The notes under the pieces are model-generated. The model did no database searches, was not told where the DNA came from, and worked only from the letters and a program-made list of their open reading frames with translations. Both the position numbers and the translations under genes were made by a program. A stretch of 64,000 nt of DNA from assembly GCF_004136635.1 (NCBI RefSeq), contig NZ_NOIU01000001.1, forward strand, positions 496,001 to 560,000, read 5' to 3'. Source of the DNA: Rothia halotolerans. GTDB taxonomy: Bacteria; Actinomycetota; Actinomycetes; Actinomycetales; Micrococcaceae. Positions 1 through 25,264 of the stretch are shown one piece after another; positions within the stretch are counted from its first letter, which is position 1, and each line of letters starts with the position of its first letter.

Positions 1-273
1 CGCCCCGGCGTCGGCCGCCTGGCCCATGGAGACCTCGCCGGTCCAGGCGCCCGCCTCCTCCCAGTGCGCGTTCTGCGCGCCCACCAGCACCGGCGAGCCC
101 GGGCCGAGCTCCTCCGCGACCGCGGCGAGGGAGGTGAAGGAGGGGATCACGAAGGGCTGGAGGCCCTCCGGCGCCCCGTCCCCGAGCCGCTCGCGCAGCC
201 CGCGGGCGTAGGCCCGGGACTCGGCGAGGGTCTTGTTCATCTTCCAGCTGGTGCCGATCCAGCGGAGGGACAT
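1..273 (-). CDS. Triosephosphate-isomerase-like protein (tetrulose-phosphate isomerase candidate), 3' truncated by window edge
   Basis: The first 91 residues are visible; the rest lies beyond position 1. The N-terminus has the TIM-barrel opening of triosephosphate isomerase, with Trp10-Lys11-Met12-Asn13 where TpiA has its N-W-K-M-N active-site strand (the first Asn is Ser here), followed by an IPSFTSL strand and VLVGAQNAHWEEAGAWTGE, which matches the TpiA stretch around the G-A-Q-N motif. The ATG lies one base after the RpiB-like stop, so the two are translationally linked. In characterised erythritol/threitol pathways a TPI-like protein (EryH/LerI type) converts L-erythrulose-1-phosphate to D-erythrulose-4-phosphate. 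With a kinase and RpiB homologue upstream, that is the likelier job than glycolytic TPI; the assignment is inferred from context. Confidence 0.85.
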   Translation of the reverse strand, partial: MSLRWIGTSWKMNKTLAESRAYARGLRERLGDGAPEGLQPFVIPSFTSLAAVAEELGPGSPVLVGAQNAHWEEAGAWTGEVSMGQAADAGA

Positions 274-274
274 C

Positions 275-733
275 TCAGCAGCCCTCGTAGGCGCGGATGG
301 CGTCCACCTTCGCCGCCGAGGAGGACTCCGGGTCGAACTCGAGGCCGAGCCACTCCCCCACCAGGGTCCGGGCCAGCTCCAGCCCGACCACGCGCTCGCC
401 CATGCACAGCACCTGCGCGTCGTTGGAGAGCACCGAGCGCTGGACCGAGTAGATGTCGTGCGCGGTCACGGCGCGGACGCCGGCGACCTTGTTGGCCGAG
501 ATCGCGACGCCGAGCCCGGTGCCGCAGATCAGCAGGGCCCGGTCCGCCTCGCCGGCGGCGATCTTCTCGGCGGCCGCGATGGCCACGTTCGGGTAGTAGG
601 TGCCGTCCTCGGTGCCGGTGACCCCGACGTCGAGGACCGAGGCGACGCGCTCGTCGGCCTCGAGGTCCTTCCTGAGGGCCTCCTTGTAGTTGAATCCGGC
701 GTTGTCCCCGCCGACCACGATCCTCAGTGCCAT
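275..733 (-). CDS. rpiB: RpiB/LacAB-family sugar-phosphate isomerase (EryI-like candidate)
   Basis: A 152-residue protein, the usual length for RpiB. It opens with a GGDNAGF strand (canonical GSDHAG), and carries the [15 protein letters not shown] block with Cys70 at the catalytic position known from E. coli RpiB, followed by [11 protein letters not shown]. RpiB proteins interconvert aldose and ketose phosphates through an enediol; in erythritol catabolism a homologue (EryI) turns D-erythrulose-4-phosphate into D-erythrose-4-phosphate. The ATG at 733 is preceded by AGAAGGAG, which decides the start. It sits between a DhaK/DhaL kinase and a TPI-like gene, so a tetrose-phosphate substrate is inferred. 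Family assignment is firm; substrate is not shown by sequence. Confidence 0.88.
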
Positions 734-824
734 GATGCTCCGCTCCTTCTGCCGTGCGATGTCCGGCTCTGCCTCTGGCCGCGTCCGCGGCCCTGTCTGT
801 TCCAACGCCCCGCCCCCGGGACGG

Positions 825-2543
825 TTATTCCCCCAGCTGCCTGCCGAGCTCCTCCATCAGCAGGGAGAAGGAGAGCGCGCCCGGGTCCGGCGTCCCGACG
901 CTCCTCTCCCCGAGCACGCGCGAGCGGCCCAGGCTCGCCCTGATCTCCGAGGTCCGCTCGGCGGCCTCGCGGGCCGTCCGGGCCGCGGCCGCCACGGCCG
1001 CCGCGGCGTCCTCGCCGTCGAACCGCTCCGCGAGCGCGTCGCGGAAGGGGACGGCGGCGTCCACCATGGTCTTGTCGCCGGGCTTCGCGCCGCCCAGGCG
1101 CATGACGGCCTCGACGGCGTCGCCCAGCGCCTCGACCGTCCGGCGCCCGTCCGCGCCCTCCGCGTCGGAGAGCGCCCCACCGGCCGCGGTGAGCGCGGCG
1201 CCCCACAGCGCGCCGGAGGTCCCCCCGGCCGCCTCGGACCAGGCCTCGCCCGCCAGCAGGAGGGCGGTGCGAGCGCCGGCGCCCTGCTCGACGGCGCGGC
1301 GGGCGGCGCGGGCCGCGCCGCGTGAGCCGTACGCCATGCCCTGGCCGTGGTCGCCGTCGCCCGCGACGGCGTCGAGCCGCCCGAGCTCCTCCTCCCGCTC
1401 GGCGCACACCCGCTCGAAGCCCTCCAGGGCCCCGGCGATCCGCTCCGCGCAGCGGCGCGAGTCATCGGAGGCCTCGGGGATCCGGGCGTCCTCGGCAGTC
1501 CAGAGCCGGCCGCGCGGCGCGCGCTCGACCTCCGGCATCATGCCCCGGTGGAAGGCCGGCGTGTCCACCGGCGCGAGCCAGTGCTCCTCGAGCTCCTCGT
1601 CCAGGAAGACCAGGGTCAGGGAGAGGCCCGCCATGTCCAGGCTCGTCACGAACTCCCCGACCTCGGGCCTCACGGCGGTGAGCCCCCTCTCGGCCAGGCG
1701 CTCGGCGACGCGCCCGTAGACGACGAAGAGCTCCTCGTACTTCACGGTCCCGAGCCCGTTGAGGATCACGGCCACCCGCCCCCGGTAGCCGCCGTCCCGC
1801 CGGGCGGGCTCCTCCTCGAGGATCCCGTCCAGGAGCAGGTCGGCGATCTCGGAGGCGCCCGCGATCGGCTCCTCGCGCACCCCGGGCTCGCCGTGGATGC
1901 CGAGCCCGACGCCCATGCTCGCCTCCGGGACGTGGAAGAGCGCCTCCTCCGCACCCGGCAGCGTGCAGCCGTCGAAGGCGACGCCGAAGGAGCGCGTCGC
2001 GTCGTTGGCCTTCCAGGCGATGCGCTCGGCCTCGTCCAGATCGGCGCCCGCCTCGATGGCGGCCCCGACGATCTTGAAGACGGGGAGGTCGCCCGCGATG
2101 CCGCGGCGGTCCCGGGAGTGCTCGACGTCGTTGGACATGACGTCGTCGCTGACCGGCACGATGCGCACGTCGATCCCCTCGTGCCGCAGCTTCTCCGCGG
2201 CGAGCCCGAAGTGCAGCACGTCCCCGGCGTAGTTGCCGAAGCCCAGCAGGACCCCGCCGCCGTTCTCCGCGTTGCGGACCACCGAGTAGACCTGGGAGGC
2301 CGAGGGCGAGGCGAAGACGTTGCCGCAGGGCGCACCGTGGCCCATGCCGGGGCCAACCCAGCCGGCGAAGGCCGGGTAGTGCCCGGACCCGCCGCCGATG
2401 ACCAGCGCCGGCTGCCCCTCCGGCGTCTCGGTGGGGCGCACGACGCCGCCGCGGACGGGCGTCACGTGGTCCGGGTGGGCGGCGGCGAGGCCGCGCACGG
2501 CCTCCTCCGCGAAGTCGGACGGGCTGTTGAAGAGGTACGTCAT
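825..2543 (-). CDS. Fused DhaK-DhaL type ketose kinase (dihydroxyacetone/tetrulose kinase)
   Basis: A 572-residue ATP-dependent kinase with DhaK (about 1-330) and DhaL (about 370-572) domains in one chain. The DhaK part shows GGGSGH with His55 as putative base and IHGEPG with His217, the residue that forms the hemiaminal with substrate in DhaK. The DhaL part shows AGDGDHG (metal/ATP-phosphate binding), [16 protein letters not shown] and SVGTPDPGA. After GGGSGH the sequence reads YPAFAG rather than EPAHAG of true dihydroxyacetone kinases, which suggests a larger ketose; LerK/DerK L- and D-erythrulose kinases belong to this family. It heads the leftward operon with RpiB-like and TPI-like genes, giving a complete tetrulose to erythrose-4-phosphate route. 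Start ATG has an AGGAAGGA ribosome site upstream. Confidence 0.9.
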
Positions 2544-2612
2544 CGTTCCTTCCTCCTTCTCGGGTGGGGCGGGACGGCCGGGCGCCGGGCTCGGGCCGGC
2601 GCTTGCCTCCTC

Positions 2613-2628
2613 TGATCCTATAGGATCA
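2613..2628. promoter_or_regulatory. Perfect 16-bp palindrome, probable GntR operator (site 1)
   Basis: TGATCCTATAGGATCA is a perfect palindrome about 70 bp ahead of the kinase start, in a short AT-rich patch of an otherwise GC-rich region. Its half-site (ATAGGAT) recurs in front of the three other transcription units of this locus, next to a GntR/FCD gene. Direct evidence is the symmetry and recurrence; binding is inferred. Confidence 0.65.
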
Positions 2629-2754
2629 ATCTCATGCTGACGAGAGGCTTTGGTACCCGACCCCTTCGGATCATACCGAGGTCGGCGGAGGAGGGTCGGC
2701 GACTCGCAGGCGCTACCTCCCGGCGCGGCTTCTTGACGACCTCTCGACTTGAAC

Positions 2755-2769
2755 CTATATCCTATATTG
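2755..2769. promoter_or_regulatory. ATAGGAT-type operator candidate overlapping the rightward promoter (site 2)
   Basis: CTATATCCTATATTG contains the ATCCTAT half-site of site 1 and a TATATT hexamer that could act as a -10 box for the gene starting at 2798. Overlap with the promoter would fit repression by the locus GntR protein. No -35 box is clear. Confidence 0.5.
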
Positions 2770-2797
2770 TGACGACCCCCATAGTGGAAGGACAACG

Positions 2798-3760
2798 ATG
2801 TTGACGGCAGAGAACTGGCCCATCGCGGCCAACATGCTCTCGTTCGGCGATCGGGCGCCGGGAGGAGGGCACATCAAGGACGCCCCCTCCGGCGTCTGGG
2901 CGCAGCAGCTGCGCCAGGTCAGGGAGCTGGGGTTCGACCACATTGATCCCACCGACGCCTGGGTCCCCCTGGCCGCCCTCTCCGAGGAGCGCCTCGAGGA
3001 GTTCCGGCGCGTGCTCGACGGCGAGGGGCTCTCCATCTCCTCGATCTCGATGACCCGCAACTCCGTGGCGGACGCCCGGAACGGGGAGCGGAACCTGGCG
3101 GACGCGCACCGTCTGGTGGACCTCGCCCCGAGCTTCGGGGCCGGAGTCGTGAACACCGGGTTCATGCAGGCCCTGACCGAGGAGCAGAGCCGGCAGGTCT
3201 GGTTCTGGCTGGTCCAGGGGCACGTCGACTCCCCCGAGCTGAGGGACCTGGCCCTCGAGCGGATCGGCGAGCTCGGCGACCACGCCCGCCGCAGCGGCGT
3301 CGAGATCAGCCTCGAGGTCTACGAGGACACCTACATCGGCACGCCGGAGGACGCCGTCGCCTTCATCCGGGACCTCGGCCACGAGGCGGTGGGGCTGAAC
3401 CCGGACCTCGGCAACCTGATCCGCCTGCACCGCGAGCTCCCGCCGGTCATGGAGATGTTCGAGGCGGTCCTCCCCCACGCGAACTTCTGGCACATCAAGA
3501 ACTACTCGCGGGACTTCGACCCGGCCACGGGCGCCTACAGCACCGCGCCCCTGCCCCTGAAGTACGGCTACGTGAACTACCGGCAGGTGATCCGGCGCGC
3601 CCTCGAGCTCGGCTACTCCGGCCCCTTCTGCTGCGAGCACTACGGCTCGGACTCGCTGGGCGTCTGCGCGGAGAACCGCGACTACATCCGGCAGGTCCTC
3701 GGCTCCGCGCTGGCCGACCCGGCCGATGATTCCTCGCCCGCCGCGGCGTCGGGCCGCTGA
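2798..3760 (+). CDS. Sugar-phosphate isomerase/epimerase-like TIM-barrel metalloenzyme (xylose-isomerase-like family)
   Basis: A 320-residue protein of the xylose-isomerase-like TIM-barrel superfamily. The four metal ligands expected for this fold can be placed: Glu173 (LEVYED), Asp203 (NPDLGN), His232 (FWHIKN) and Glu280 (CCEHYG). Members include hydroxypyruvate isomerase, tagatose epimerase, IolE, OtnI (2-oxo-tetronate isomerase) and OiaC, a 3-oxo-isoapionate decarboxylase that yields L-erythrulose. Length exceeds that of OtnI (about 260). Divergent from a tetrulose kinase operon and followed after 28 bp by a dehydrogenase, it probably makes the ketose the kinase uses, or isomerises an oxidised acid sugar. 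Start ATG has GGAAGGA upstream. The exact reaction cannot be read from the sequence. Confidence 0.8.
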   Translation: MLTAENWPIAANMLSFGDRAPGGGHIKDAPSGVWAQQLRQVRELGFDHIDPTDAWVPLAALSEERLEEFRRVLDGEGLSISSISMTRNSVADARNGERNLADAHRLVDLAPSFGAGVVNTGFMQALTEEQSRQVWFWLVQGHVDSPELRDLALERIGELGDHARRSGVEISLEVYEDTYIGTPEDAVAFIRDLGHEAVGLNPDLGNLIRLHRELPPVMEMFEAVLPHANFWHIKNYSRDFDPATGAYSTAPLPLKYGYVNYRQVIRRALELGYSGPFCCEHYGSDSLGVCAENRDYIRQVLGSALADPADDSSPAAASGR

Positions 3761-3788
3761 CCGTCCCCTCAACCTCGAACGGAGACCC

Positions 3789-4565
3789 ATGACCAAGAAC
3801 TCGTTCCCCTCATCCCGCACAGCCGTCGTCACCGGTGCCGGCGCCCCGCGCGGCATCGGCCGGCACGTCGCCCGCAGGCTCGCGGCCGACGGGTGGGACA
3901 TCGCCGCCCTGGACATCGACGAGGCCGCGGTCGCCGGATTCGCGACGGAGCTGTCCGCCGAGACCGGCCGGACCGTCGTCGGCATCGGCGTGGACATCGC
4001 GGACAAGGAATCGGTCGACGCCGCCTTCTCCCGCATCGACGAGGAGCTGCCTCCCGTGCTCGCCGAGGTGAACCTCGCCGGCGTGGCCAGCCCGCACTCC
4101 TTCTTCGAGATCACCGACGAGATCTTCACGCGCGTCGTCGACGTCAACGCGAAGGGCACGCTGTTCATGATGCAGGCCGCCGCCGAGCGGATGATCGAGG
4201 GCGGCTTCGGCGGGCGGATCGTCAACACCTCGTCCGTGACGGCCTACGACGGCGGCGGCACCTTCTCGAAGACCGGATACGCCGCCGCGAAGGCGGCCGT
4301 GCTCGGCCTGACCCGGGGAGGCGCCCGCGAGCTCGGGAAGCACGGCATCACGTGCAACTCCATCGTCCCCGGCCCGATCGACACCGACATCATGGGCGGG
4401 AAGCTCACGGACGACCGCAAGGCGGGGATGTCCTCCGACATCCCGCTGGAGCGCGTGGGCCAGCCCGACGAGGTCGCAGGCCTCATCGGCTTCCTGGTCA
4501 GCGAGGACTCGAGCTTCGTCAACGGGGACTCCGTCTTCGTGGACGGCGGCAAGCACATGGTCTGA
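3789..4565 (+). CDS. Short-chain dehydrogenase/reductase (SDR family)
   Basis: A classical 258-residue SDR. The nucleotide-binding turn TGAGAPRGIG is at 15-24, the structural motif appears as NLAGV (NNAG position) near residue 95, the catalytic serine lies in NTSSVTAYDG, and Tyr164 and Lys168 form the YxxxK pair. C-terminal NSIVPGPIDTDI and VNGDSVFVDGG blocks are typical. An acidic residue after the second strand (ALDIDEA) predicts NAD rather than NADP. It lies between the TIM-barrel enzyme and an anion symporter, so it likely oxidises the imported polyol or acid sugar at a secondary hydroxyl. Substrate unknown. Confidence 0.88.
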   Translation: MTKNSFPSSRTAVVTGAGAPRGIGRHVARRLAADGWDIAALDIDEAAVAGFATELSAETGRTVVGIGVDIADKESVDAAFSRIDEELPPVLAEVNLAGVASPHSFFEITDEIFTRVVDVNAKGTLFMMQAAAERMIEGGFGGRIVNTSSVTAYDGGGTFSKTGYAAAKAAVLGLTRGGARELGKHGITCNSIVPGPIDTDIMGGKLTDDRKAGMSSDIPLERVGQPDEVAGLIGFLVSEDSSFVNGDSVFVDGGKHMV

Positions 4566-4648
4566 TCCGCGTCCCCGGGGCCCGGTGCGTGCGACCGCGC
4601 CGGGCCCCTCCACCCGCAGCACCCCACCACCACGAACAGAGGACGAAG

Positions 4649-5998
4649 ATGTCCGCAGAAACGCCCGCGCCCCGCCGGAACGTCGTCGAGAAGGACCGGG
4701 AGCGATACTCGCCCGCCGTGGAGGCGGCCACCCGGAAGGCGCGCTGGCGCCTGCTGCCCTTCCTCATGCTGATGTTCGTGATCGCCTTCATCGATCGCAC
4801 CAACATCGGCTTCGCGGAGCAGGACCTGGAGGTCCACGCCGGCCTCTCCGCGAGCGCCTACGCCTTCGGCGCGGGCCTCTTCTTCATCGGCTACGCCGTC
4901 TTCGAGGTGCCCTCCAACCTCATCATGCACAAGGTGGGGGCGCGCTGGTGGATGGCCAGGATCATGGTGACCTGGGGGATCATCGCCGCGCTGTTCATGT
5001 TCGTCAGCGGCCCCACGATGTTCTACGTCCTGCGGTTCCTGCTCGGCGTCGCGGAGGCCGGGTTCTTCCCGGGCGTGATCCTGTACCTCACCTACTGGTT
5101 CCCGCGCCGCAAGCGGGCCCAGGCGACCGCCCTGTTCTACCTGGGGCTGCCCATCGCCAACATCGTCGGGGGCCCCCTCTCCGGCGGGCTCCTCGAGCTC
5201 GACGGCACCCTCGGCCTGCACGGCTTCCAGTGGATGTTCATGATCGAGGGGCTCGTCGCCGTCCTGGTGGGCGTGATCGCCTTCTTCTATCTCACCGACC
5301 GGCCCGAGAAGGCCCGTTGGCTCAGCGAGGAGGAGCGCGGCGAGCTGGCCGCGACCCTGCGGGCCGAGGCCGGGGCCAAGCAGGAGACGGCCAAGCTCAG
5401 CTGGTGGCGCGCCCTGGTCAACGGACGGGTGCTCTACTTCTCGGTCGCCTACCTGGCCATCCAGGCCGCGGTCTACGGCCTCACCTTCTTCCTGCCCCGG
5501 CAGGTGGCGGGGATCGTGGGGCAGGACGTCGGGTTCACGGTGGGCCTCCTGGTCGCGATCCCCTGGATGGCGGGCCTGGTCACCACGTTCTTCATCGGGC
5601 GGGCCGCCGACCGCTCCGCGCGCTACCGGCAGATCTCGACGCTGATGCTGGTGATCTCCGGCGTCGGCCTCCTGCTCTCCGCATACGTCCAGCAGCCGGT
5701 CCTGGCCATGATCGCGCTGTGCCTGGGGGCGATCGGCTTCGTCTCCACCCAGCCCATCTTCTGGAACCTCCCGACCAGCTACCTCTCGGGAGCGGCCATG
5801 GCCTCCGGCGTCGGCCTGATCAACGGGCTGGGCAACCTGGGCGGCTTCCTCGCGCCGAACCTCCGGGCCTGGGTCGTGGAGGCCACCGGCACCGAGTCGG
5901 CGGGCCTGCTCCTGCTGGCCGGCGCACCGTTCCTCGGGGCCCTCCTGATCTTCGGGACCAAGGCCTTCGAGCGGCGGGACCGGCGGCTGGAGGGGTGA
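4649..5998 (+). CDS. MFS transporter, anion:cation symporter (ACS) family
   Basis: 449 residues with twelve predicted membrane segments. The first helix carries FIDRTNIGFA, the hallmark of the ACS family (hexuronate, glucarate, tartrate, phthalate transporters), followed by a loop with GYAVFEVPSN and GARWWMARIM, the family's motif-A region, and LRFLLGVAEAGFFPG. ACS members import organic anions with protons, so the substrate is expected to be an acid sugar or related carboxylate. The ATG is preceded by GAGGACGA. It follows the SDR gene by 83 bp and should share its promoter. The locus encodes a second, unrelated carboxylate transporter (TctCBA) downstream. Confidence 0.88.
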   Translation: MSAETPAPRRNVVEKDRERYSPAVEAATRKARWRLLPFLMLMFVIAFIDRTNIGFAEQDLEVHAGLSASAYAFGAGLFFIGYAVFEVPSNLIMHKVGARWWMARIMVTWGIIAALFMFVSGPTMFYVLRFLLGVAEAGFFPGVILYLTYWFPRRKRAQATALFYLGLPIANIVGGPLSGGLLELDGTLGLHGFQWMFMIEGLVAVLVGVIAFFYLTDRPEKARWLSEEERGELAATLRAEAGAKQETAKLSWWRALVNGRVLYFSVAYLAIQAAVYGLTFFLPRQVAGIVGQDVGFTVGLLVAIPWMAGLVTTFFIGRAADRSARYRQISTLMLVISGVGLLLSAYVQQPVLAMIALCLGAIGFVSTQPIFWNLPTSYLSGAAMASGVGLINGLGNLGGFLAPNLRAWVVEATGTESAGLLLLAGAPFLGALLIFGTKAFERRDRRLEG

Positions 5999-6042
5999 GG
6001 CCGGCACCACGCGGGGAGATGGGGCTCGACGGCAATCGCGTG

Positions 6043-6055
6043 AAATAGGATATTG
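6043..6055. promoter_or_regulatory. ATAGGAT-type operator candidate upstream of the GntR gene (site 3)
   Basis: AAATAGGATATTG repeats the half-site found at 2613 and 2755, about 90 bp ahead of the GntR start, suggesting autoregulation. It lies between the MFS stop and the regulator, so the regulator may have its own promoter here. Confidence 0.5.
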
Positions 6056-6142
6056 ACGAGCGGATGTGCCGTCCGTGCCGGTGAACGCCGTGCGGGGCCC
6101 GATGCGCGGCCCCGCCGGGCCGGGATGCGAAGGAGTGCCGAG

Positions 6143-6820
6143 ATGTCGATCAAGCGCCAAGCCCTGCGCGACGAGGTGTACGAGCTGATCCTCGCCGAGC
6201 TCCTGGGCGGTCAGCGCCCTCCCGGCTCCCGGCTCAGCATCGACGGGCTGGCCCGCCAGTTCGAGATCTCCCCCACCCCGGTGCGGGAGGCGCTGGTCTC
6301 GCTCGAGCACTCCGGGCTTGTCCAGTACGCCGCACGGCGGGGGTACGTCGTCGCGCCGGCGCTGTCCGAGCGCCAGATCCGCGAGCTGATCGACACGCGC
6401 CAGATCGTCGAGGGGGCCGCGCTCAGCCGCTCCTTCGCCGACTGGGAGTCCTTCCAGCGGGATCTCCGCCGCGCGCACGAGGAGCACAGCGGCGTCGTCG
6501 AGCGCATCGCGGAGTCGGGGAGCCCCGACTACGAGATGGTCCGCGAGCACTTCCGCGTGGACTGGGGCTTCCACCGCACCTTCTTCCAGCACGCGGACAA
6601 CCGCTACCTCACCGAGATCATCGAGTCCCTGGGAACCCACGTGCACAGGATGCGCCAGACCTGGGCCTCGCCGGCAGAGAGCCTCGATGCGCAGGAGGCT
6701 CTCGCGGAGCATGCTGAGATCCTGAATCATGTAGCAAATCGCAATCACGACGCCGCCCTAGCCGCTCTCCGCGCCCATCTGGACCATGTCCGGGACCGCT
6801 CCACGACCTCCCTCTCCTGA
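6143..6820 (+). CDS. GntR-family transcriptional regulator (FCD/FadR subfamily)
   Basis: A 225-residue GntR regulator. Residues 1-75 form the winged helix-turn-helix: VYELILAELLGG, RLSIDGLARQFEISPTPVRE, then ALVSLEHSGLVQ and the wing RGYVVAP. The rest is an all-helical FCD ligand domain with conserved acidic and histidine residues (FRVDWGFHRTFF, AEHAEILNHV) that usually bind a metal and a carboxylate effector. The start at 6143 has AAGGAG eight bases upstream; a longer TTG start at 6053 lacks one. It sits in the middle of the acid-sugar locus, and ATAGGAT motifs occur before all surrounding transcription units, so it is the probable local repressor, released by a pathway acid. Confidence 0.92.
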   Translation: MSIKRQALRDEVYELILAELLGGQRPPGSRLSIDGLARQFEISPTPVREALVSLEHSGLVQYAARRGYVVAPALSERQIRELIDTRQIVEGAALSRSFADWESFQRDLRRAHEEHSGVVERIAESGSPDYEMVREHFRVDWGFHRTFFQHADNRYLTEIIESLGTHVHRMRQTWASPAESLDAQEALAEHAEILNHVANRNHDAALAALRAHLDHVRDRSTTSLS

Positions 6821-6838
6821 GCGATCTCTCCCCATTTA

Positions 6839-6859
6839 CCCCCGCATCTAGGGGTTTTT
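6839..6859 (+). terminator. Short intrinsic terminator after GntR gene
   Basis: CCCC, a seven-base loop, GGGG and then TTTTT, 18 bp after the GntR stop. The stem is short but the T-run is exceptional for this GC-rich window. Confidence 0.5.
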
Positions 6860-6924
6860 CCTCCTCCAACACGGCCTCGTCACGTTTTCAGGCATTGACA
6901 ACCCTCGTAGGCTGCGTCACACTT

Positions 6925-6953
6925 TTGATCCAAGATCCTATTTGATTTAGATC
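6925..6953. promoter_or_regulatory. ATAGGAT-type operator candidate upstream of pdxA2 (site 4)
   Basis: An AT-rich patch containing TTGATCCAAGATCCTATTTG, with ATCCTAT at 6935-6941 matching sites 1-3 and two further GATC half-sites on either side. It ends about 50 bp before the PdxA2-like start, the position of a repressor site for the pdxA2-tctCBA unit. Confidence 0.5.
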
Positions 6954-7002
6954 GGGGTGACGACGTCGTCGCCCGCGTGGACCAACCGCCTGGAGGCCTT
7001 CC

Positions 7003-7998
7003 ATGTCCCCTTCCGCCCCTCGCCTCGCCCTCACCTTCGGCGACTTCTCCGGCATCGGACCCGAGCTGGGCGCCCGGCTGCTCTCCGACCCGGAGAACCT
7101 CGAGCGCGCGCAGATCTCCCTCCTGGTCTCCCCGGCGGAGCTCGCGCGGGCCAGCGAGCTGGCCGGCGTCGAGGTCCCGGTCGGAGAGGAGCCCGGCACC
7201 GGGCACGTCCACCTGGTCGAGACGCCGCTGCAGGACCGCGAGGTCCCCCTGAGGGAGTGCTCCCAGGAGGCCGGCTCCCGCGTCCTGCAGGACCTGAGCA
7301 CCGCGCTGCGGCTCTTCCAGGAGGGCCAGGCCGACTCCATCATGTTCCTCCCCCTCAACAAGACGGCGCTGCGGCTGGGCGGGATGCACGAGGAGGACGA
7401 GCTGCGCTGGTTCGCCAAGTCCCTCGGGGACACCGGCTTCACGAGCGAGCTGAACTTCATCCCCGGACTGACCACCTCCCGGGTGACCTCCCACATCCCG
7501 CTCGCCGAGGTCGCCGAGCACATCAGCGCCCGCAGCGTGCTGGACTCGATCGAGCTCCTGCACGACGTCGTCCGCGGCACCGGCGTGGAGAGCCCCCGGA
7601 TCGCGGTGGCCGCCCTCAACCCGCACGCGGGCGAGAACGGCCAGTTCGGCCGGGAGGAGATCGACCACATCGCCCCGGCCGTGGCCCTGGCTCGCTCCGG
7701 CGGCCTCGACGTCGCCGGGCCCTTCCCCTCCGACACGCTGTTCATCAAGGCCCGGGCCGGGGAGTTCGACGGCGTCGTCACCATGTACCACGACCAGGGC
7801 CAGATCGCGATGAAGCTCATGGGCTTCGACCAGGGCGTGACCGTCCAGGGCGGCCTCTCGGTACCGATCGCGACCCCCGCCCACGGCACCGCCTACGAGA
7901 TCGTGGGCACCGGAAAGGCCAATATCGGCCCCAGCCAGCGGGCCTTCGAGATCGCCGTGGACCTCGGCGCGCAGACCGCGCGCCGACGCCGGGCCTGA
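7003..7998 (+). CDS. pdxA2: PdxA2-like 4-phospho-D-threonate/erythronate dehydrogenase (decarboxylating)
   Basis: A 331-residue member of the PdxA family. The N-terminal motif reads GDFSGIGPE where biosynthetic PdxA has GDPAGIGPE. Metal-binding and substrate regions are present: ALNPHAGENGQFGREE, PSDTLF, YHDQGQIAMKL and PAHGTAYEI. PdxA2 paralogues oxidise 4-phospho-D-threonate or -erythronate and release CO2, giving dihydroxyacetone phosphate. No other pdx genes are nearby, while a GntR regulator and a carboxylate transporter flank it, so a catabolic role is much more likely than vitamin B6 synthesis. The start has GGAGG upstream. The kinase that would make its substrate is not in this operon; a DUF1537 kinase lies at 22.3 kb. 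Confidence 0.85.
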   Translation: MSPSAPRLALTFGDFSGIGPELGARLLSDPENLERAQISLLVSPAELARASELAGVEVPVGEEPGTGHVHLVETPLQDREVPLRECSQEAGSRVLQDLSTALRLFQEGQADSIMFLPLNKTALRLGGMHEEDELRWFAKSLGDTGFTSELNFIPGLTTSRVTSHIPLAEVAEHISARSVLDSIELLHDVVRGTGVESPRIAVAALNPHAGENGQFGREEIDHIAPAVALARSGGLDVAGPFPSDTLFIKARAGEFDGVVTMYHDQGQIAMKLMGFDQGVTVQGGLSVPIATPAHGTAYEIVGTGKANIGPSQRAFEIAVDLGAQTARRRRA

Positions 7999-8120
7999 GC
8001 CGGCGGCGCCGGGCCCGGTCCGGCGGCGGGACTGTCCTGCCGCCGCCGGGAACGACTCGGCGCCGCTCCCCCGCGGGCCCTCCCGGCCCGCCCCTTTCGG
8101 ATCTGTGCAAGGAGGCATGG

Positions 8121-9071
8121 ATGCACCTGTCCCGACGAACCCTGCTGGGCTCCGGCGCAGCGGCGATGCTCGCCGCGGCGATCACCGGATGCTCGTCCCG
8201 GAGCGAGGACTCCGGCGGCAACGCGACGATGATCGTCCCCTTCGCCCCGGGCGGGGGCTCGGACCAGTCCGGCCGCGCCCTCGCCGACGGCCTCGAGCAG
8301 GCCCTGGGCAACTCGATCTCGGTCGAGAACGTCCAGGGCGGCTCGGGTGCCATCGGCTACTCGACCTTCCTGGGCATGCACGGCGACTCCAGCCAGCTGC
8401 TGGCCACGGAGACCGCCATGATGGTCCTCCCGCTGACCCAGGACGTGCGCTTCAGCTATCGCGACTTCACCCCGATCTTCAAGGCCGGGGACGACTACAC
8501 CCTCGTGGTGACCCGCCCCGACGCGCCCTACGCCGACGCCGCCGAGCTGGTCCGGGCGGCCCGCGAGCGCAGCGTCCTGGTGGGCGTCTCCGGTGCGACG
8601 AGCCTCGACGAGATCGTCTTCTCCCTCATCGAGAAGGACCAGGACATGCGCTTCGACCGGGTGCCCTACGAATCCGGCGGCGAGGTCCTCGCCGCCCTGC
8701 TGGGCGGGCACGTCGAGGCGGCCTCCCTCAACCCCAGCGAGGTGATCGGTCAGCTGGCCAGCGGCGATCTCCGCGCACTGTGCGCGCTGACCCCCGAGCG
8801 CTTCGAGGCCGAGGCTCTGCGGGACATCCCGACGGGCAGGGAGCAGGGGATCGACGTCGCCTTCGCCCAGTTCCGCGGCGTGATCGCGCCGGGAGGCATC
8901 ACCGATCAGCAGCGGGAGCGCTGGATCGAGGCCGCGCGCGAATACGCCCGCACCGATGCCTATCGGTCCTATCTGGAGGAGAACTACATGGTCGAGGAGC
9001 CGCTGTTCGGCGAGGACTTCGGCCCGTACCTCGACCGATACCACGACGACCTCGCGGAGGCCCTCTCATGA
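8121..9071 (+). CDS. tctC: TctC-family solute-binding lipoprotein of a tripartite tricarboxylate transporter
   Basis: 316 residues. The N-terminus has SRRTLLG, a hydrophobic stretch and AITGC, a lipobox, so it is a lipoprotein, possibly Tat-exported. The mature part matches the Bug/TctC fold: IVPFAPGGGSDQSGRALA (the family's carboxylate-binding loop), ENVQGGSGAIG, and later a YESGGEVLAALLGGHVEA block. It captures a carboxylate outside the membrane and delivers it to TctAB. The start follows AAGGAGG. Its last four bases overlap the tctB start (ATGA). A 122-bp GC-rich spacer with inverted repeats separates it from pdxA2. The ligand is inferred to be a short acid sugar from context. Confidence 0.9.
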   Translation: MHLSRRTLLGSGAAAMLAAAITGCSSRSEDSGGNATMIVPFAPGGGSDQSGRALADGLEQALGNSISVENVQGGSGAIGYSTFLGMHGDSSQLLATETAMMVLPLTQDVRFSYRDFTPIFKAGDDYTLVVTRPDAPYADAAELVRAARERSVLVGVSGATSLDEIVFSLIEKDQDMRFDRVPYESGGEVLAALLGGHVEAASLNPSEVIGQLASGDLRALCALTPERFEAEALRDIPTGREQGIDVAFAQFRGVIAPGGITDQQRERWIEAAREYARTDAYRSYLEENYMVEEPLFGEDFGPYLDRYHDDLAEALS

Positions 9072-9586
9072 GCACGCACACCGACACCAGCACGCGCACC
9101 AGCGCGAAGGGGCGCACCAGGAGGTCCTCCGACCTGGTCTTCGCCGTCCTGATCCTGCTGCTCGGCGTCGTCGCCCTGGTGGGCGGCCTCGTCTACGGCC
9201 TGGAGCAGGAGGAGCGGGTCGGCCCGGGCGCGATGCCCGCGGCCGCGGGCGTCCTGATCGTGATCCCGGCCCTGCTCCAGGTCCGCAGGGAGCTACGGAC
9301 GCTGCGCTCCGGCGAGCGGGAGCACGACGACGTCGACCCCGACGCTCCGCAGACCCGGCGCGTCGTCGTCCTCTTCCTCCTGATCGCCCTCTCGGTGGCG
9401 CTGACCTACGTCATCGGGATGCTGATCTCGGTGTCCCTCCTGGTCGGGGCGCTGTTCATTCTCGACAACCCCCGCAAGCCCTGGGTCGGCGCCGTCGCGG
9501 CGGTCGTCGCGGCCCTCTTCGGCTGGGGCGTCTTCGAAGTCCTCCTGGAGGTTCCCCTGCCGCGGGGCTTCCTCAACCTGCTCTGA
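9068..9586 (+). CDS. tctB: TctB-like small membrane subunit of tripartite tricarboxylate transporter
   Basis: 172 residues with four predicted membrane helices (about 22-45, 55-72, 97-130, 137-160) and a charged cytoplasmic loop between helices two and three. This is the layout of the poorly conserved TctB subunit. GPGAMPAAAG after the first helix matches the G-P-x-x-x-P motif seen in TctB proteins. The start overlaps tctC (ATGA) and tctA follows after 12 bp, so the three form one operon. Identity rests largely on position and topology, which together are convincing. Confidence 0.85.
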   Translation: MSTHTDTSTRTSAKGRTRRSSDLVFAVLILLLGVVALVGGLVYGLEQEERVGPGAMPAAAGVLIVIPALLQVRRELRTLRSGEREHDDVDPDAPQTRRVVVLFLLIALSVALTYVIGMLISVSLLVGALFILDNPRKPWVGAVAAVVAALFGWGVFEVLLEVPLPRGFLNLL

Positions 9587-9598
9587 GGTGACAGAACC

Positions 9599-11155
9599 AT
9601 GATCGAGAACCTCGCGGTCGGATTCTCCGCATCGCTCTCCCCCGAGAACCTGCTCTGGTGCCTGATCGGCGTCGTCGTCGGCACCGTGATCGGCATGCTG
9701 CCGGGCCTGGGCGCTACGACCGGCATCGCGATCCTGATCCCCCTGACCCTCGGCATGGATCCGCTGACGGCGCTGATCATGCTCGCGGGCATCTACTACG
9801 GCTGTCAGTACGGCTCCACCATCTCCGCGGTGCTCATCGCGACGCCAGGGGACGCGAACGCCGTCTCGACCGTGATCGACGGGTACGCGATGGCGCGCAA
9901 CGGCAGGGCCGGGGCCGCGCTGGCGATCTCGGCGATCGGCTCGTTCGTCGCCGCGATCGTCTCGGTGGTGCTGCTGGCCACCCTCGCCGGCCCCATCGCC
10001 GACCTCGCGATCGGATTCGGGCCCGCCGAGAACTTCGCGATCATGGTCTTCGCGATGGCCACCATCGTCGCCTTCTCCGGGGCGGACATCCGCAAGGGGC
10101 TGATGATGGCGGGACTCGGCATCGCCCTGTCGACCGTCGGCGTCGCCATGGGCTTCACCACCGCGCGGTTCACCGGGGGGTCGGTGAACCTGCTGGGCGG
10201 ACTGGACTTCGTCGTCGTCATGATCGGCATCTTCGCGATCGGCGAGGTGCTCTCGCAGATCTCCGCCGGGGGCGCCGAGCCCATCCGCGCCCGGTTCCGG
10301 GACATGCTGATCACCCGCAAGGAGCTCAGGCAGGCTTCGCCCGCGATCGCGCGAGGCACCGGCATCGGCTTCGTCTTCGGCTCGCTGCCGGGCGCCGGCT
10401 CGACCCTGGCGTCCTTCCTCGCCTACGGCGTCGAGAAGTCGGTCTCCAAGACTCCGGAGCGCTTCGGCAAGGGCGCGATCCAGGGCGTGGCCGCCCCGGA
10501 GTCGGCCAACAACTCGGCGGCCAACGCCAACTTCATCCCGACGCTGAGCCTGGGCATCCCGGGCGGCTCCACGACGGCGGTGCTGCTGGGCGCGTTCATC
10601 ATGTACGGGGTCCAGCCCGGCCCGCTGCTCTTCACCGAGCAGCCGACGCTGGTGTGGGGCCTGATCACCTCGTTCTTCATCGGCAACGTGATCCTGCTGG
10701 TGCTGAACCTGCCGCTGGCCCCGGCCTTCGCGCAGATCCTGCGGCTGCCCTACAACCACCTCTACCCGTTCATCATCTTCTTCAGCCTTATCGGGGCGTT
10801 CGCCGTCGCGGGCAACACCTTCGGGCTGATCGTGGTGCTGGTGGCGAGCGCCCTGGGGTTCTGCCTCAAGAAGTTCGGGTACCCCAGCGCCCCGCTCATC
10901 CTTGGCCTGGTGCTGGGGCCGATGACGGAGAAGGCCCTCGTCCAGACCTCGGCGTTCGGCCGCGGGGATCTCTCGATCCTGCTGCAGTCGCCGGTGGCGA
11001 TGACCATCCTGATCCTGGCCGTGGTGCTCGCGGCCGCGCCGATCCTGAGCCGCAGCCTGCGGGAGAGGGCGCGGCGGAAGAGGGACCTCGAGACCGCCGC
11101 GGAGGCTTCGGCCGCCGAGCGGGAGCCGGATCACGACTCCCAGCCGAGCCGGTAG
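9599..11155 (+). CDS. tctA: TctA-family large permease subunit of tripartite tricarboxylate transporter
   Basis: 518 residues, the usual TctA length, with about twelve membrane segments. Diagnostic blocks include GMLPGLGATTGIAILIPLT, the GIYYGCQYGSTISAVLIATPG stretch, GSLPGAGSTLASFLAYG and the signature LGIPGGSTTAVLLGAF; the two similar Gly/Pro-rich halves reflect the internal duplication of the family. It forms the transport channel with TctB and uses TctC for capture, probably driven by a sodium or proton gradient. It ends the pdxA2-tctCBA unit and is followed 20 bp later by a strong terminator. Confidence 0.93.
   Translation: MIENLAVGFSASLSPENLLWCLIGVVVGTVIGMLPGLGATTGIAILIPLTLGMDPLTALIMLAGIYYGCQYGSTISAVLIATPGDANAVSTVIDGYAMARNGRAGAALAISAIGSFVAAIVSVVLLATLAGPIADLAIGFGPAENFAIMVFAMATIVAFSGADIRKGLMMAGLGIALSTVGVAMGFTTARFTGGSVNLLGGLDFVVVMIGIFAIGEVLSQISAGGAEPIRARFRDMLITRKELRQASPAIARGTGIGFVFGSLPGAGSTLASFLAYGVEKSVSKTPERFGKGAIQGVAAPESANNSAANANFIPTLSLGIPGGSTTAVLLGAFIMYGVQPGPLLFTEQPTLVWGLITSFFIGNVILLVLNLPLAPAFAQILRLPYNHLYPFIIFFSLIGAFAVAGNTFGLIVVLVASALGFCLKKFGYPSAPLILGLVLGPMTEKALVQTSAFGRGDLSILLQSPVAMTILILAVVLAAAPILSRSLRERARRKRDLETAAEASAAEREPDHDSQPSR

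Positions 11156-13580: not shown

Positions 13581-13584
<4 letters not shown>
12679..13584 (+). CDS. Lytic murein transglycosylase lipoprotein (SLT/MltB-like fold)
   Basis: 301 residues from the ATG at 12679; an in-frame ATG at 12646 is possible but has no ribosome site. A basic N-terminus, hydrophobic segment and LLLASC lipobox make it a lipoprotein. A disordered stretch is followed by a lysozyme-like domain: GWNALAGIGWIESQHG with the catalytic Glu in WIESQHG, then AVGPMQFLPETWAAAG, an EF-hand-like DGDRDGRADP, and ALTAAAYLC...NRSVDYLWDV. Such enzymes cut peptidoglycan between MurNAc and GlcNAc, often with resuscitation-promoting or growth roles in actinobacteria. It converges on the msmK-like gene, with the two stop codons sharing CTAG. 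Confidence 0.85.
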
Positions 13585-14714
<1,130 letters not shown>

Positions 14715-15122: not shown

Positions 15123-15911
15123 ATGCTGGCGCAGCAACGACACGCACGGATCCTGCACGAAGTGCAGGCGCGGGGCACGGTCCACGTCCACGACCTGGCC
15201 GAGCTCCTCGACGTCTCGGCCATGACCGTGCGCCGGGACCTCGCCGAGCTGGACGAGCAGGGACTGCTCAACCGGGTGCACGGCGGAGCGGAGTCGACCG
15301 CCTCCACCCTGGAGCCCGCCTACGCGGAGAAGATGTCCCTGCACGCCGAGTCGAAGGCCGCGATCGCCGGCCGCGCGGCACAGCTGGTGCGGCCCGGGCA
15401 CTCGGTGGCCTTCTCCGCCGGGACCACCTGCACCCGCATCGCCCAGGAGATCACCGGCCCGCACCGCGTCGGGGACCTGACGGTGGTGACTAACTCGCTT
15501 CCGGTGGCCGACGAGTTCTTCCGCTCCCGGAACCGGAGCCGGCACGACGGCGGGGAGCCGCACGTGCTGCTGACCGGCGGCGAGCGGACCCCCTCGGACG
15601 CCCTGGTGGGGCCGCTGGCCGACGCCGCCCTGGCCGAGCTGCACGTGGACCTGCTGTTCATCGGCGCCCACGGAGCCGACGAGGCGGGGCTGACCACGCC
15701 GAACCTCAACGAGGCCCGCACCAACCGGGCGCTGGTGCGGTCCGCGCGCCAGGTCGTGGCCGTGTTCGACCACAGCAAGTGGGGCATCACCGGCCTCTCC
15801 GGCTTCGCCCGCTGGGGCGAGGTGGACACCGTCATCACCGACCCCGGCCTGCCGGAGGAGGCCGTCCGGATGCTGCGGGACTCGGTCCCGGACGTGGTCG
15901 TGGCCTCGTGA
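15123..15911 (+). CDS. DeoR-family transcriptional regulator
   Basis: 262 residues. The N-terminal DeoR helix-turn-helix is complete (LLDVSAMTVRRDLAELDEQGLLNRVHGGA, with the signature R-R-D-L). The C-terminal sugar-phosphate sensor shows FSAGTTCTRIAQE, VVTNSLPVADEF and LLTGGERTPSDALVGPLA, then LLFIGAHGADEAGLTTPN and VFDHSKWG, all standard for the ISOCOT-type effector domain. It starts the galT-galK operon (GTGA overlap with galT), so it most likely represses galactose use and responds to a galactose-derived phosphate. Start ATG with AAGGGGA upstream. Confidence 0.92.
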   Translation: MLAQQRHARILHEVQARGTVHVHDLAELLDVSAMTVRRDLAELDEQGLLNRVHGGAESTASTLEPAYAEKMSLHAESKAAIAGRAAQLVRPGHSVAFSAGTTCTRIAQEITGPHRVGDLTVVTNSLPVADEFFRSRNRSRHDGGEPHVLLTGGERTPSDALVGPLADAALAELHVDLLFIGAHGADEAGLTTPNLNEARTNRALVRSARQVVAVFDHSKWGITGLSGFARWGEVDTVITDPGLPEEAVRMLRDSVPDVVVAS

Positions 15912-17050
15912 ACGCCGGCACCGGCACCGCGGCCGAGGTCCGGGAGACCCGCGGCCGGCTCGCCGACGGGCGGGAGATCATCTTCTTCGACGACTCGGAG
16001 CCCTACGTCTCCGGGCGGAAGGTCCGACGCATCCGGGACCCCCGCCCGCTCGAGCCCCGTCAGCTGCCCCCGCACGAGGCCGCGAGCATCCGCGTCGACC
16101 CGCTCACCGGGGACCCGGTGGCGCTCGCCGCGCACCGCATGAACCGCACCTTCCTCCCGCCGGCCGACGAGGACCCGCTGGCCCCGGCCGGTCGGGGCAG
16201 CGTGCCGAGCGAGATCCCGGAGGAGGAGTACGACGTCGTCGTCTTCGAGAACCGCTTCCCCTCGCTGCAGGGCCCGCTGGAGATCCTGCGGGACGAGCCG
16301 CCCTTCGTGGAGACCACCCCGGCCGGGCGCTGCGAGGTGGTGAGCTTCACCTCCGACCGCCGGGGCTCCTTCGCCGAGCTCGGGCACCGGCGGGCGCGCA
16401 CCGTGATCGAGGCCTGGACCCACCGGACGCGGGAGCTCAACGCGCTCGACGGCGTCGTGCAGGTGGTGCCCTTCGAGAACCGCGGCGAGGAGATCGGCGT
16501 GACCCTGCACCATCCGCACGGGCAGATCTACGCCTATCCGTACCTGCCGCCGCACACCGCGGCCGTGCAGCGGCGGGCCGCCGCGTGGTCCCGGGAGCGG
16601 GAGGGCGCCGACCTGCTGGGCGACGTGCTGGCCGCCGAACTGGCCGAGGGCGTCCGCGTGGTCCTGGAGGCCGAGCACTGGGTCGCCTACGTCCCCTTCG
16701 CCGCCAAGTGGCCCGTGGAGCTCTCGGTGATGCCCTGCCGGGCCGCCGCCGACTTCACCGCGCTGACCGAGGCGGAGAAGGAGGAGCTGGCGGAGGTGTA
16801 CCTGGACCTGCTCGGCCGGCTGGACCGCTTCTTCGACGGCGTCGATCGGCTGCCCTACATCTCCGTGTGGCACCAGGTCCCGACCAGCGGCGGCGAGGAC
16901 ATCTCCCGGATGCGGCTGCAGGTCTTCTCGCTGCTGCGCTCGCCGGGGAAGCTGAAGTACCTGGCCGGCTCGGAGTCGGGGGTCGGCGCGTGGGTCAGCG
17001 ACACCACGCCCGAGCGGATCGCGGCGCGGCTGCGGGAGGTGGCCCCGTGA
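15908..17050 (+). CDS. galT: Galactose-1-phosphate uridylyltransferase
   Basis: 380 residues. The active-site triad HPH is seen at His202-Pro-His204 in HHPHGQIYAYP, after the conserved VPFENRGEEIGVTLHH; a second conserved region is WVAYVPFAAKWPVELSVMP, and the C-terminal half has YISVWHQVPTSGGED. GalT swaps UMP between UDP-glucose and galactose-1-phosphate in the Leloir pathway through a uridylyl-histidine intermediate. GTG start overlaps the deoR stop, and its own stop overlaps galK, so the three are co-translated. No galE is present here. Confidence 0.95.
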   Translation: MNAGTGTAAEVRETRGRLADGREIIFFDDSEPYVSGRKVRRIRDPRPLEPRQLPPHEAASIRVDPLTGDPVALAAHRMNRTFLPPADEDPLAPAGRGSVPSEIPEEEYDVVVFENRFPSLQGPLEILRDEPPFVETTPAGRCEVVSFTSDRRGSFAELGHRRARTVIEAWTHRTRELNALDGVVQVVPFENRGEEIGVTLHHPHGQIYAYPYLPPHTAAVQRRAAAWSREREGADLLGDVLAAELAEGVRVVLEAEHWVAYVPFAAKWPVELSVMPCRAAADFTALTEAEKEELAEVYLDLLGRLDRFFDGVDRLPYISVWHQVPTSGGEDISRMRLQVFSLLRSPGKLKYLAGSESGVGAWVSDTTPERIAARLREVAP

Positions 17051-22166: not shown

Positions 22167-22250
22167 GGTGTCTTCCTCCAGGGGTTGAGGTGTGGTGCGG
22201 GCCGGCGGCGGCCGGCGGGCATCGATTCTGTGGGGGGGGGCGGGGCGGGC

Positions 22251-23642: not shown

Positions 23643-23689
23643 GGGAGGGCCTTTCTGCGGAAGCGGGGCGGGGCGGCGGGCGGGGAGGG

Positions 23690-25126: not shown

Positions 25127-25176
25127 GGGAAATCCTCGTTGATTTCGGCCGGAGTGCGACGCGGAGGTCGCACCTG

Positions 25177-25188
25177 TCAGATATCTGA
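25177..25188. promoter_or_regulatory. Palindrome TCAGATATCTGA in divergent gntP/gntR promoter
   Basis: Perfect 12-bp palindrome in the 138-bp divergent region, 50 bp from the gntP start. Candidate operator for the GntR protein encoded next to it. Confidence 0.5.
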
Positions 25189-25204
25189 TAAGTGTATTGC
25201 TAAT

Positions 25205-25226: not shown

Positions 25227-25264
25227 GGTGCGCGATGCGGCGCACGGTCCGGCGAGGAGTCCCC

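What the first reader, a model, noticed from the sequence alone, without database searches (positions are those of the whole stretch)
1..11155. A compound acid-sugar/tetrulose locus with an unusual gene combination
Seen: a DhaK-DhaL kinase, RpiB-like and TPI-like genes divergent from a TIM-barrel metalloenzyme, an SDR, an ACS transporter, a GntR protein, a PdxA2-like dehydrogenase and a complete TctCBA transporter. Known: kinase plus EryH/EryI-type isomerases take L-erythrulose to erythrose-4-phosphate; PdxA2 turns phospho-threonate/erythronate into DHAP. Inferred: the locus degrades a polyol/acid pair or a branched acid through two exits (erythrose-4-P and DHAP). I know of no described pathway with exactly this set.
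Basis: partly seen in the sequence, partly recalled or inferred. Interest (0 to 1): 0.7.

Follow-up and report, generated by a model that had tools for sequence, protein, structure and literature searches.

The report
Sugar-acid to erythrulose pathway and regulon
These neighbouring bacterial genes look like one co-regulated pathway, apparently not yet described, that takes up a sugar acid, turns it into the four-carbon sugar erythrulose and feeds it into central metabolism as erythrose-4-phosphate.

Summary
The genes are real and belong together. A TIM-barrel enzyme (79% identical to PDB 5tnv, Mycobacterium smegmatis), a DhaK-DhaL kinase and EryH/LerI- and EryI/DerI-like isomerases recur across Actinomycetota. 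In 297 genomes of the order, 65 of 66 with a 3HCDH-type dehydrogenase have the TIM gene, as do 12 of 13 with the window's PdxA-like gene (within 12.7 kb in 11 of those 12). In Isoptericola and relatives the two dehydrogenase-plus-transporter cassettes replace each other at one site. Sinorhizobium, Shinella and Paracoccus plasmids carry PdxA-TctCBA-TIM-kinase together. A palindrome, ATCCTATAGGAT, lies between kinase and TIM; the genome's only other site with at most one mismatch precedes a 3HCDH-GntP pair 432 kb away. The PdxA-like protein is not PdxA2: it and 139 aligned relatives lack the GHTE, Asn and Arg phosphate-site residues, and no acid-sugar kinase lies in the locus, so the proposed DHAP exit is unsupported. 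Best reading: a non-phosphorylated (probably C5) sugar acid is oxidised at C3, decarboxylated (TIM) to erythrulose, and leaves as erythrose-4-phosphate. Substrate and TIM chemistry are inferred; no function is shown.

The parts
1..273 (-). LerI/EryH-like TPI-family isomerase (5' part; the gene continues 479 bases left of the window)
   Evidence: L002 11521-12273, 250 aa; 50% identical to the TPI-family proteins of a Rhizobium leguminosarum erythritol-type locus and of an R. etli locus with an RLP gene, 36% to this genome's other TPI, but only 35% to one of an Arthrobacter kinase-RpiB-TPI plasmid locus
275..733 (-). DerI/EryI-like RpiB-family isomerase
   Evidence: PF02502; TIGR02133 (ribose-5-phosphate isomerase) above cut-off; DerI model NF051858 150.9 bits, below its 240 cut-off
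825..2543 (-). DhaK-DhaL fusion kinase, proposed L-erythrulose 1-kinase (LerK type)
   Evidence: PF02733+PF02734; 54-55% identical to the kinases of the S. meliloti and Paracoccus PdxA-Tct-TIM runs, 50% to this genome's second DhaKL
2613..2628 (.). palindromic operator TGATCCTATAGGATCA in the divergent kinase|TIM promoter region
   Evidence: the only exact copy of the 12-base core in the 3.04-Mb genome
2759..2770 (.). second, half-conserved operator-like site (ATCCTATATTGT)
   Evidence: 3 mismatches; this level is not above chance
2798..3760 (+). xylose-isomerase-like TIM-barrel enzyme, proposed 3-oxo-acid decarboxylase giving erythrulose
   Evidence: PF01261; 5tnv; E173, D203, H232, E280 invariant in the 29 sequences (metal-ligand role recalled from the ketose 3-epimerases)
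3789..4565 (+). SDR dehydrogenase, role unassigned
   Evidence: a homologue of at least 60% identity in 23 of 76 loci
4649..5998 (+). MFS (ACS/galactonate type) transporter, proposed acid uptake
   Evidence: PF07690; TIGR00893 273 bits, below its cut-off of 395
6045..6051 (.). operator half-site ATAGGAT upstream of GntR
6143..6820 (+). GntR/FCD regulator, proposed to bind the ATCCTATAGGAT operator
   Evidence: PF00392+PF07729
6935..6946 (.). operator-like site ATCCTATTTGAT upstream of PdxA
   Evidence: 2 mismatches; one of eleven such places in the genome, so weak on its own; the three called PdxA homologues elsewhere have sites with 1 mismatch
7003..7998 (+). PdxA-family dehydrogenase of a subfamily without the phosphate-site residues, proposed sugar-acid 3-dehydrogenase
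   Evidence: PF04166; alignment; fold
8121..9071 (+). TctC periplasmic binding protein
   Evidence: PF03401
9068..9586 (+). TctB
   Evidence: PF07331
9599..11155 (+). TctA permease
   Evidence: PF01970

Best explanation
The locus and a distant 3HCDH-GntP pair form one regulon for eating a non-phosphorylated, probably five-carbon, sugar acid. The acid enters by TctCBA, the ACS transporter or the distant GntP permease. A beta-hydroxyacid dehydrogenase (the PdxA-like protein here, the 3HCDH-type protein at G000:C3:930860, perhaps the SDR) oxidises C3. The metal-dependent TIM barrel then decarboxylates the 3-oxo acid to erythrulose. The DhaK-DhaL kinase makes erythrulose 1-phosphate, the TPI-like enzyme (LerI/EryH) makes D-erythrulose 4-phosphate, and the RpiB-like enzyme (DerI/EryI) makes D-erythrose 4-phosphate, which joins the pentose phosphate pathway. 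The GntR protein represses through ATCCTATAGGAT sites and is relieved by the acid or an intermediate. Shown: gene content, co-occurrence, cassette exchange, shared sites, replaced phosphate-site residues. Inferred: the acid, its length, C3 oxidation, the TIM reaction, the substrates of kinase and isomerases, GntR binding. My own step estimates: one regulated unit 0.95; exit at erythrose-4-phosphate 0.8; acid oxidised at C3 0.7; C5 acid with TIM as decarboxylase 0.45.
For: (a) Of 76 named loci with the TIM gene, DhaKL is present in 60, RpiB-like in 55, TPI-like in 50 (all three in 44), 3HCDH in 55, PdxA and TctA in the same 4; none of the 76 has both PdxA and 3HCDH. (b) In one sample of 297 genomes of the order (E <= 1e-70): TIM 77, 3HCDH 66, both 65; PdxA-like 13, with TIM 12, and 982-12,636 bases from it (low end to low end) in 11 of those 12. 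PdxA is in 6 of the 12 TIM genomes without 3HCDH and in 6 of the 65 with it, p = 0.002, ignoring relatedness. (c) Isoptericola 4D.3 (L075) carries GntR-PdxA-TctBAC exactly where L079 and L067 carry 3HCDH-ACS-GntR, with the same flanking genes. (d) One plasmid record each of S. meliloti, Shinella and Paracoccus holds PdxA, TctCBA, TIM and kinase as one run. (e) Operator: genome-wide only two sites with at most 1 mismatch, between kinase and TIM and before the distant 3HCDH-GntP; in the 76 loci, at most 2 mismatches upstream of TIM in 44 of 73, kinase 24 of 57, GntR 22 of 36, PdxA 3 of 3, against 23 of 806 other genes; reversed-motif control 1 of 73 for TIM and 0 in the other classes. (f) TPI-like is 50% to the EryH-position protein, 36% to the genome's other TPI. 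LerK/LerI/DerI chemistry: passages read in PMC10733421.
Against: No activity is measured. NCBIfam calls the TPI-like and RpiB-like proteins TPI (338.7 against 293) and ribose-5-P isomerase (TIGR02133, 204.5 against 168.2) above cut-off, while the DerI model fails. The TPI-family protein of an Arthrobacter kinase-RpiB-TPI plasmid locus, a likely actinobacterial LerI, is only 35% identical to the window's. One genome, G255, has both PdxA and 3HCDH within 12 kb of TIM, so the two are not strict alternatives. Fold neighbours of the TIM after 5tnv are mostly ketose epimerases and isomerases; none is titled decarboxylase. If the PdxA-like enzyme decarboxylates, as PdxA and the terephthalate-diol enzymes do (recalled; 'decarboxylase' in PDB titles), a TIM decarboxylase would be redundant. 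K274 of the recalled phosphate site is kept. 29 of 73 loci have no site with at most 2 mismatches upstream of TIM, and SDR (1 of 48), ACS (0 of 15) and GntP (0 of 31) rarely have one; within the window at 3 mismatches there is no excess (5 against 4.15 expected). TIM-3HCDH pairs without a kinase in the stretch seen exist (L082, L083, L093).
Confidence: 0.5

Rival explanations
1. Same pathway, but the TIM barrel is an isomerase or epimerase: it interconverts 2-oxo and 3-oxo acid or D- and L-erythrulose, while the dehydrogenase step (or spontaneous loss of CO2) does the decarboxylation.
Against: No BLASTP match to the EryC-position TIM protein of a Rhizobium erythritol-type locus. It leaves the 3HCDH route without an enzyme for decarboxylation. 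A shared fold says little about the reaction.
Confidence: 0.3
2. A C4 acid is oxidised at C3 and decarboxylated to dihydroxyacetone; DhaKL and TPI are genuine dihydroxyacetone kinase and triose-phosphate isomerase, and the exit is DHAP.
For: NCBIfam names for kinase and TPI; C4-acid genes lie 10 kb downstream in the window and a 3-oxo-tetronate kinase and aldolase follow the Paracoccus run.
Against: It does not explain the RpiB-family gene, present in 55 of 76 loci, nor the TPI being closer to the erythritol-locus enzyme (50%) than to the genome's other TPI (36%).
Confidence: 0.1
3. A branched acid (D-apionate type): the TIM is a 3-oxo-isoapionate decarboxylase (OiaC type).
For: Some Brachybacterium loci pair the same kinase and isomerases with a PGDH_C-domain protein 35% identical to one in an R. 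etli locus with an RLP gene, beside another TIM barrel; the D-apionate pathways are recalled.
Against: In those loci the PGDH_C protein sits beside a different TIM barrel (c13); neither was called in the window's 19-kb stretch L003 (the rest of the genome was not searched for them). A simple beta-dehydrogenase cannot start apionate breakdown (recalled chemistry).
Confidence: 0.07
4. One reading: two exits, with PdxA2 turning phospho-threonate or -erythronate into DHAP.
For: PdxA-family fold; closest solved sequences include PdxA2; a DUF1537 kinase exists at window 22254-23642.
Against: His136, Thr137, Asn283 and Arg292 are replaced in 140 of 142 aligned proteins, the two others being E. coli PdxA and a distant L066 protein that keeps Thr137 and Arg292; score 175 against a cut-off of 583; no DUF1537 gene was called beside PdxA in L043, L058, L075, L126 or L130, though L058 is short and a 3-oxo-tetronate kinase does follow TctA in Paracoccus.
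Confidence: 0.03

Closest known systems
Tetritol catabolism of M. smegmatis (EltD, LerK, LerI, DerI; Huang et al. 2015, recalled; described in passages of PMC10733421 and PMC12780249)
   Same: DhaKL-type kinase (recalled), TPI-like and RpiB-like isomerases leading to erythrose-4-phosphate
   Different: Here entry is by acid transporters and beta-dehydrogenases plus a TIM barrel; a separate DhaKL-RpiB-alcohol-dehydrogenase locus in the same genome fits the polyol route better
Brucella/Rhizobium erythritol pathway (EryABC, EryH, EryI; recalled; locus L127 in hand)
   Same: EryH- and EryI-position proteins are 50% and 41% identical to the window's
   Different: No EryA/EryB here; the TIM has no BLASTP match to the EryC-position protein
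D-apiose/D-apionate pathways (Carter et al. 2018, recalled; R. etli locus L128 in hand)
   Same: An acid becomes erythrulose or its phosphate, then LerI/DerI; a TIM-barrel decarboxylase (OiaC) is one branch
   Different: No RLP and no PGDH_C oxidoisomerase called in this locus; 3HCDH or PdxA-like dehydrogenase instead
D-threonate pathway (DUF1537 kinase + PdxA2; recalled)
   Same: PdxA fold and the three metal-binding histidines
   Different: No adjacent kinase; phosphate-site residues replaced
PdxA-type terephthalate dihydrodiol dehydrogenase/decarboxylase
   Different: Its substrate-site residues were not compared here

Membership tests
PdxA2 (D-threonate 4-phosphate dehydrogenase) | equivalog score of PRK03371 | tested here: not met
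   175.2 bits against a cut-off of 583
PdxA2 (D-threonate 4-phosphate dehydrogenase) | GHTE motif, Asn283 and Arg292 (phosphate site; roles recalled) | tested here: not met
   window has DELR, Thr, Ile; GHTE, Asn and Arg are present in the five solved PdxA/PdxA2 chains shown
PdxA2 (D-threonate 4-phosphate dehydrogenase) | adjacent DUF1537 kinase | tested here: not met
   the genome's only PF07005 gene is about 14 kb away, beside LtnD-like and GntP genes
PdxA superfamily | PdxA fold and metal histidines 166, 211, 266 | tested here: met
LerK/LerI/DerI erythrulose module | DhaKL kinase, TPI-like and RpiB-like genes together | tested here: met
LerK/LerI/DerI erythrulose module | TPI-like protein closer to EryH/LerI than to the other TPI | tested here: met
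   50% (Rhizobium) against 36%; but 35% to the Arthrobacter L129 protein
LerK/LerI/DerI erythrulose module | DerI equivalog NF051858 | tested here: not met
   150.9 against 240; the model's short name ends in 'Rhiz', so it may be a rhizobial model
LerK/LerI/DerI erythrulose module | activity on erythrulose and its phosphates | not testable with these tools
   needs enzyme assays
EryC (D-erythrulose-1-phosphate 3-epimerase) | sequence similarity to the EryC-position protein of an ery locus | tested here: not met
   no BLASTP match at E <= 10 between window TIM and L127 9168-10100; profile comparison not run
D-apionate pathway | PGDH_C-type oxidoisomerase or RLP in the locus | tested here: inconclusive
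   none called in the 19-kb L003; the rest of the genome was not searched
5tnv protein family (M. smegmatis; the entry title names no function) | sequence and fold | tested here: met

The most novel reading that the evidence does not exclude
An undescribed catabolic pathway, shared by Actinomycetota and alphaproteobacteria, that converts a linear C5 sugar acid to erythrulose without phosphorylating it. Two unrelated beta-dehydrogenases are exchangeable as cassettes with their transporters: a 3HCDH type, and a PdxA subfamily that has lost its phosphate site. A new TIM-barrel family, already crystallised as 5tnv without a named function, acts as a metal-dependent 3-oxo-aldonate decarboxylase.
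Probability: 0.4. Interest if true: 0.68.

Novelty: new variant of a known kind. Interest (0 to 1): 0.57.

Why it matters
It would assign a function to a solved structure whose entry names none (5tnv), to a widespread PdxA subfamily now labelled a vitamin B6 enzyme, and to a 3HCDH subfamily whose nearest models are fatty-acid enzymes. It would also add a route from sugar acids to erythrose-4-phosphate. The operator and the cassette exchange make it directly testable.

Tried and rejected
Chance neighbours: rejected by the recurrence of linkage in Actinomycetota and in alphaproteobacterial plasmids, and by the shared operator. TIM as EryC: no BLASTP match. PdxA as a vitamin B6 enzyme: not pursued beyond noting that it is the only match found in the genome at E <= 0.001. 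A FadR-type consensus (TNGTN2-3ACNA, recalled) was sought in eight upstream regions and found in none. The operator was not found upstream of the alphaproteobacterial genes (best 4-5 mismatches); these share instead a TGCATACAGAAT-like palindrome. My first ORF caller misread several genes and was replaced; the second still missed or cut some (for example L046, L048, L074), so tblastn (at least 35% of the query covered, identity floors of 35-60% by gene) was used for the window-gene counts, while the 3HCDH count rests on called ORFs and may be low. The fold list holds no entry titled decarboxylase; that is not evidence of absence. Papers: passages read in PMC12780249, PMC10733421, PMC11747546; of other papers only search listings were seen. 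Carter 2018, Zhang 2016, Huang 2015 and the Brucella paper are not held and are cited from recall. Searches returned no paper; others listed papers none of which, by title and abstract start, describes this gene set; two failed.
Full report
WHAT IS THERE. The window is G000:C3:496001-560000 of a 3.04-Mb genome (the window is 72% GC). The eleven genes of the finding are confirmed; the TPI-like gene lies mostly left of the window.

THE CORE MODULE. A scan of named genomes with the TIM protein gave 76 loci, mostly Mycolicibacterium/Mycobacterium, Brachybacterium, Nesterenkonia and Promicromonosporaceae, with one gammaproteobacterium, Carnimonas. By tblastn, the kinase is in 60 of 76, the RpiB-like gene in 55, the TPI-like gene in 50, all three in 44; several loci are cut by contig ends. 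Clustering of called ORFs revealed a gene that the window lacks: a 3HCDH-domain dehydrogenase, in 55 of the 76 loci, commonly next to TIM and often followed by a GntP permease. The minimal set, as in Mycolicibacterium, is GntR, TIM, 3HCDH, GntP, kinase, RpiB-like, TPI-like: an acid-type permease, one beta-hydroxyacid-type dehydrogenase, the TIM barrel and an erythrulose-phosphate module. The distribution is patchy: in a first set of 59 relatives TIM was found in 8, and within the genus in the window's genome and 2 of 34 others (E <= 1e-60).

THE MISSING GENE IS ELSEWHERE IN THE SAME GENOME. A 3HCDH gene (75% to the L047 protein; 85% to a Brachybacterium one) and a GntP partner lie at G000:C3:930860 onwards.

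CO-OCCURRENCE. In one sample of 297 genomes of the order (E <= 1e-70), TIM was found in 77, 3HCDH in 66, both in 65; the PdxA-like gene in 13, 12 of them with TIM. Fisher tests give 7e-52 and 5e-7, but related genomes are not independent. Exceptions: G288 has 3HCDH without TIM, G293 PdxA without TIM, and 12 genomes have TIM without 3HCDH. Where both TIM and PdxA are present they are 982-12,636 bases apart in 11 of 12; in G244 they are on different contigs. PdxA is in 6 of the 12 TIM genomes lacking 3HCDH and in 6 of the 65 having it (p = 0.002), the window's genome being one of the latter. None of the 76 named loci holds both dehydrogenases, but G255 has both within 12 kb of TIM. So the two dehydrogenases look like alternatives that can also coexist.

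CASSETTE EXCHANGE. L079 and L067 read c23-c24-c25 | TIM-kinase-RpiB-TPI-3HCDH-ACS-GntR | c28; Isoptericola 4D.3 (L075) reads c23-c24-c25 | TIM-kinase-RpiB-TPI-GntR-PdxA-[TctB]-TctA-TctC | c28 (TctB by tblastn). L064 is the same as L079 without ACS; L070 keeps the left flank and then ends; L072 is arranged differently. A dehydrogenase with its transporter has been replaced by another dehydrogenase with its transporter. On a TIM tree of 80 rows the PdxA-linked label (8 rows, labelled by me) needs at least 5 changes that starred branches force; several long branches, the window's among them, make exact placement unsure. Outside Actinomycetota, one plasmid record each of Sinorhizobium meliloti, Shinella and Paracoccus carries PdxA, TctCBA, TIM (46-49% identical) and kinase in one run.

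A SHARED OPERATOR. The kinase|TIM promoter region holds the perfect palindrome TGATCCTATAGGATCA. In the whole genome the core ATCCTATAGGAT has 13 places with at most 2 mismatches (control pattern 6). Only two have at most 1: this one, and the one 114 bases before the 3HCDH-GntP pair, 432 kb away. The PdxA site is one of eleven with 2 mismatches, so alone it proves nothing. In the 76 loci (250 bases upstream, ORF-called genes with at least 100 bases available) sites with at most 2 mismatches precede TIM in 44 of 73, kinase in 24 of 57, GntR in 22 of 36, 3HCDH in 9 of 55, PdxA in 3 of 3, RpiB 3 of 49, TPI 1 of 49, against 23 of 806 other genes; the reversed motif gave 1 of 73 for TIM and 0 in every other class. 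Divergent genes share upstream regions and many loci are close relatives, so these counts overlap. SDR (1 of 48), ACS (0 of 15) and GntP (0 of 31) have almost none, which may mean that they lie inside operons. 29 of 73 TIM genes have none, among them most Nesterenkonia and Promicromonospora loci. At 3 mismatches the window shows no excess. That GntR is the binder is inference.

THE EXIT. The TPI-like protein is 50% identical to the EryH-position protein of a Rhizobium erythritol-type locus (L127) and to that of an R. etli locus with an RLP gene (L128), against 36% to the genome's other TPI; yet it is only 35% identical to the TPI-family protein of an Arthrobacter kinase-RpiB-TPI plasmid locus (L129). 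With an RpiB-family partner and a DhaKL kinase this is the LerK-LerI-DerI signature (chemistry from passages of PMC10733421). NCBIfam names these proteins TPI and ribose-5-phosphate isomerase above cut-off; the names conflict with my reading and only assays settle it.

VERDICT. A real, recurrent, apparently co-regulated pathway unit, a variant of the known acid- or polyol-to-erythrulose routes, with an undescribed front end as far as the searched papers show (106 and 108 failed; key papers not held).

Noticed in passing
window 21288-27054: A separate C4-acid set: LtnD-like dehydrogenase (262.8 bits, cut-off 350), the genome's only DUF1537 kinase, a GntP permease and a divergent D-erythronate dehydrogenase above its cut-off (422.7 against 325). 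The genome's only Aldolase_II match (possible OtnC) is at G000:C3:894135.
   Followed up: partly
G000:C3:426769-428980 (L109): A second RpiB (69%) and DhaKL (52%) pair with a zinc-type alcohol dehydrogenase, two FGGY-type kinases (by eye) and a polyol/uronate-type dehydrogenase, all below NCBIfam cut-offs where scanned: a likely erythritol/threitol locus.
   Followed up: partly
for example L027, L032, L044, L053, L085, L087: GntP-type permease + PGDH_C-domain protein + second TIM barrel (c13), beside the kinase module in several: candidate D-apionate genes converging on the same erythrulose module.
   Followed up: partly
L064, L067, L070, L075, L076, L079 (and L021): A conserved trio, a xylose-isomerase-like TIM, DUF993 and a Gfo/Idh-type oxidoreductase, diverges from the TIM-kinase operon; in L021 it lies a few kb away.
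   Followed up: no
L125 9763-9986, L126 5439-5636, L130 5516-5703: Alphaproteobacterial runs share a different palindrome around TGCATACAGAAT, perhaps the operator of their GntR protein.
   Followed up: no
window 15123-18471: DeoR-type regulator followed by genes that look like galT and galK, with a sugar-ABC-type ATPase gene on the other strand at 13581-14714 (by eye, no family search).
   Followed up: no
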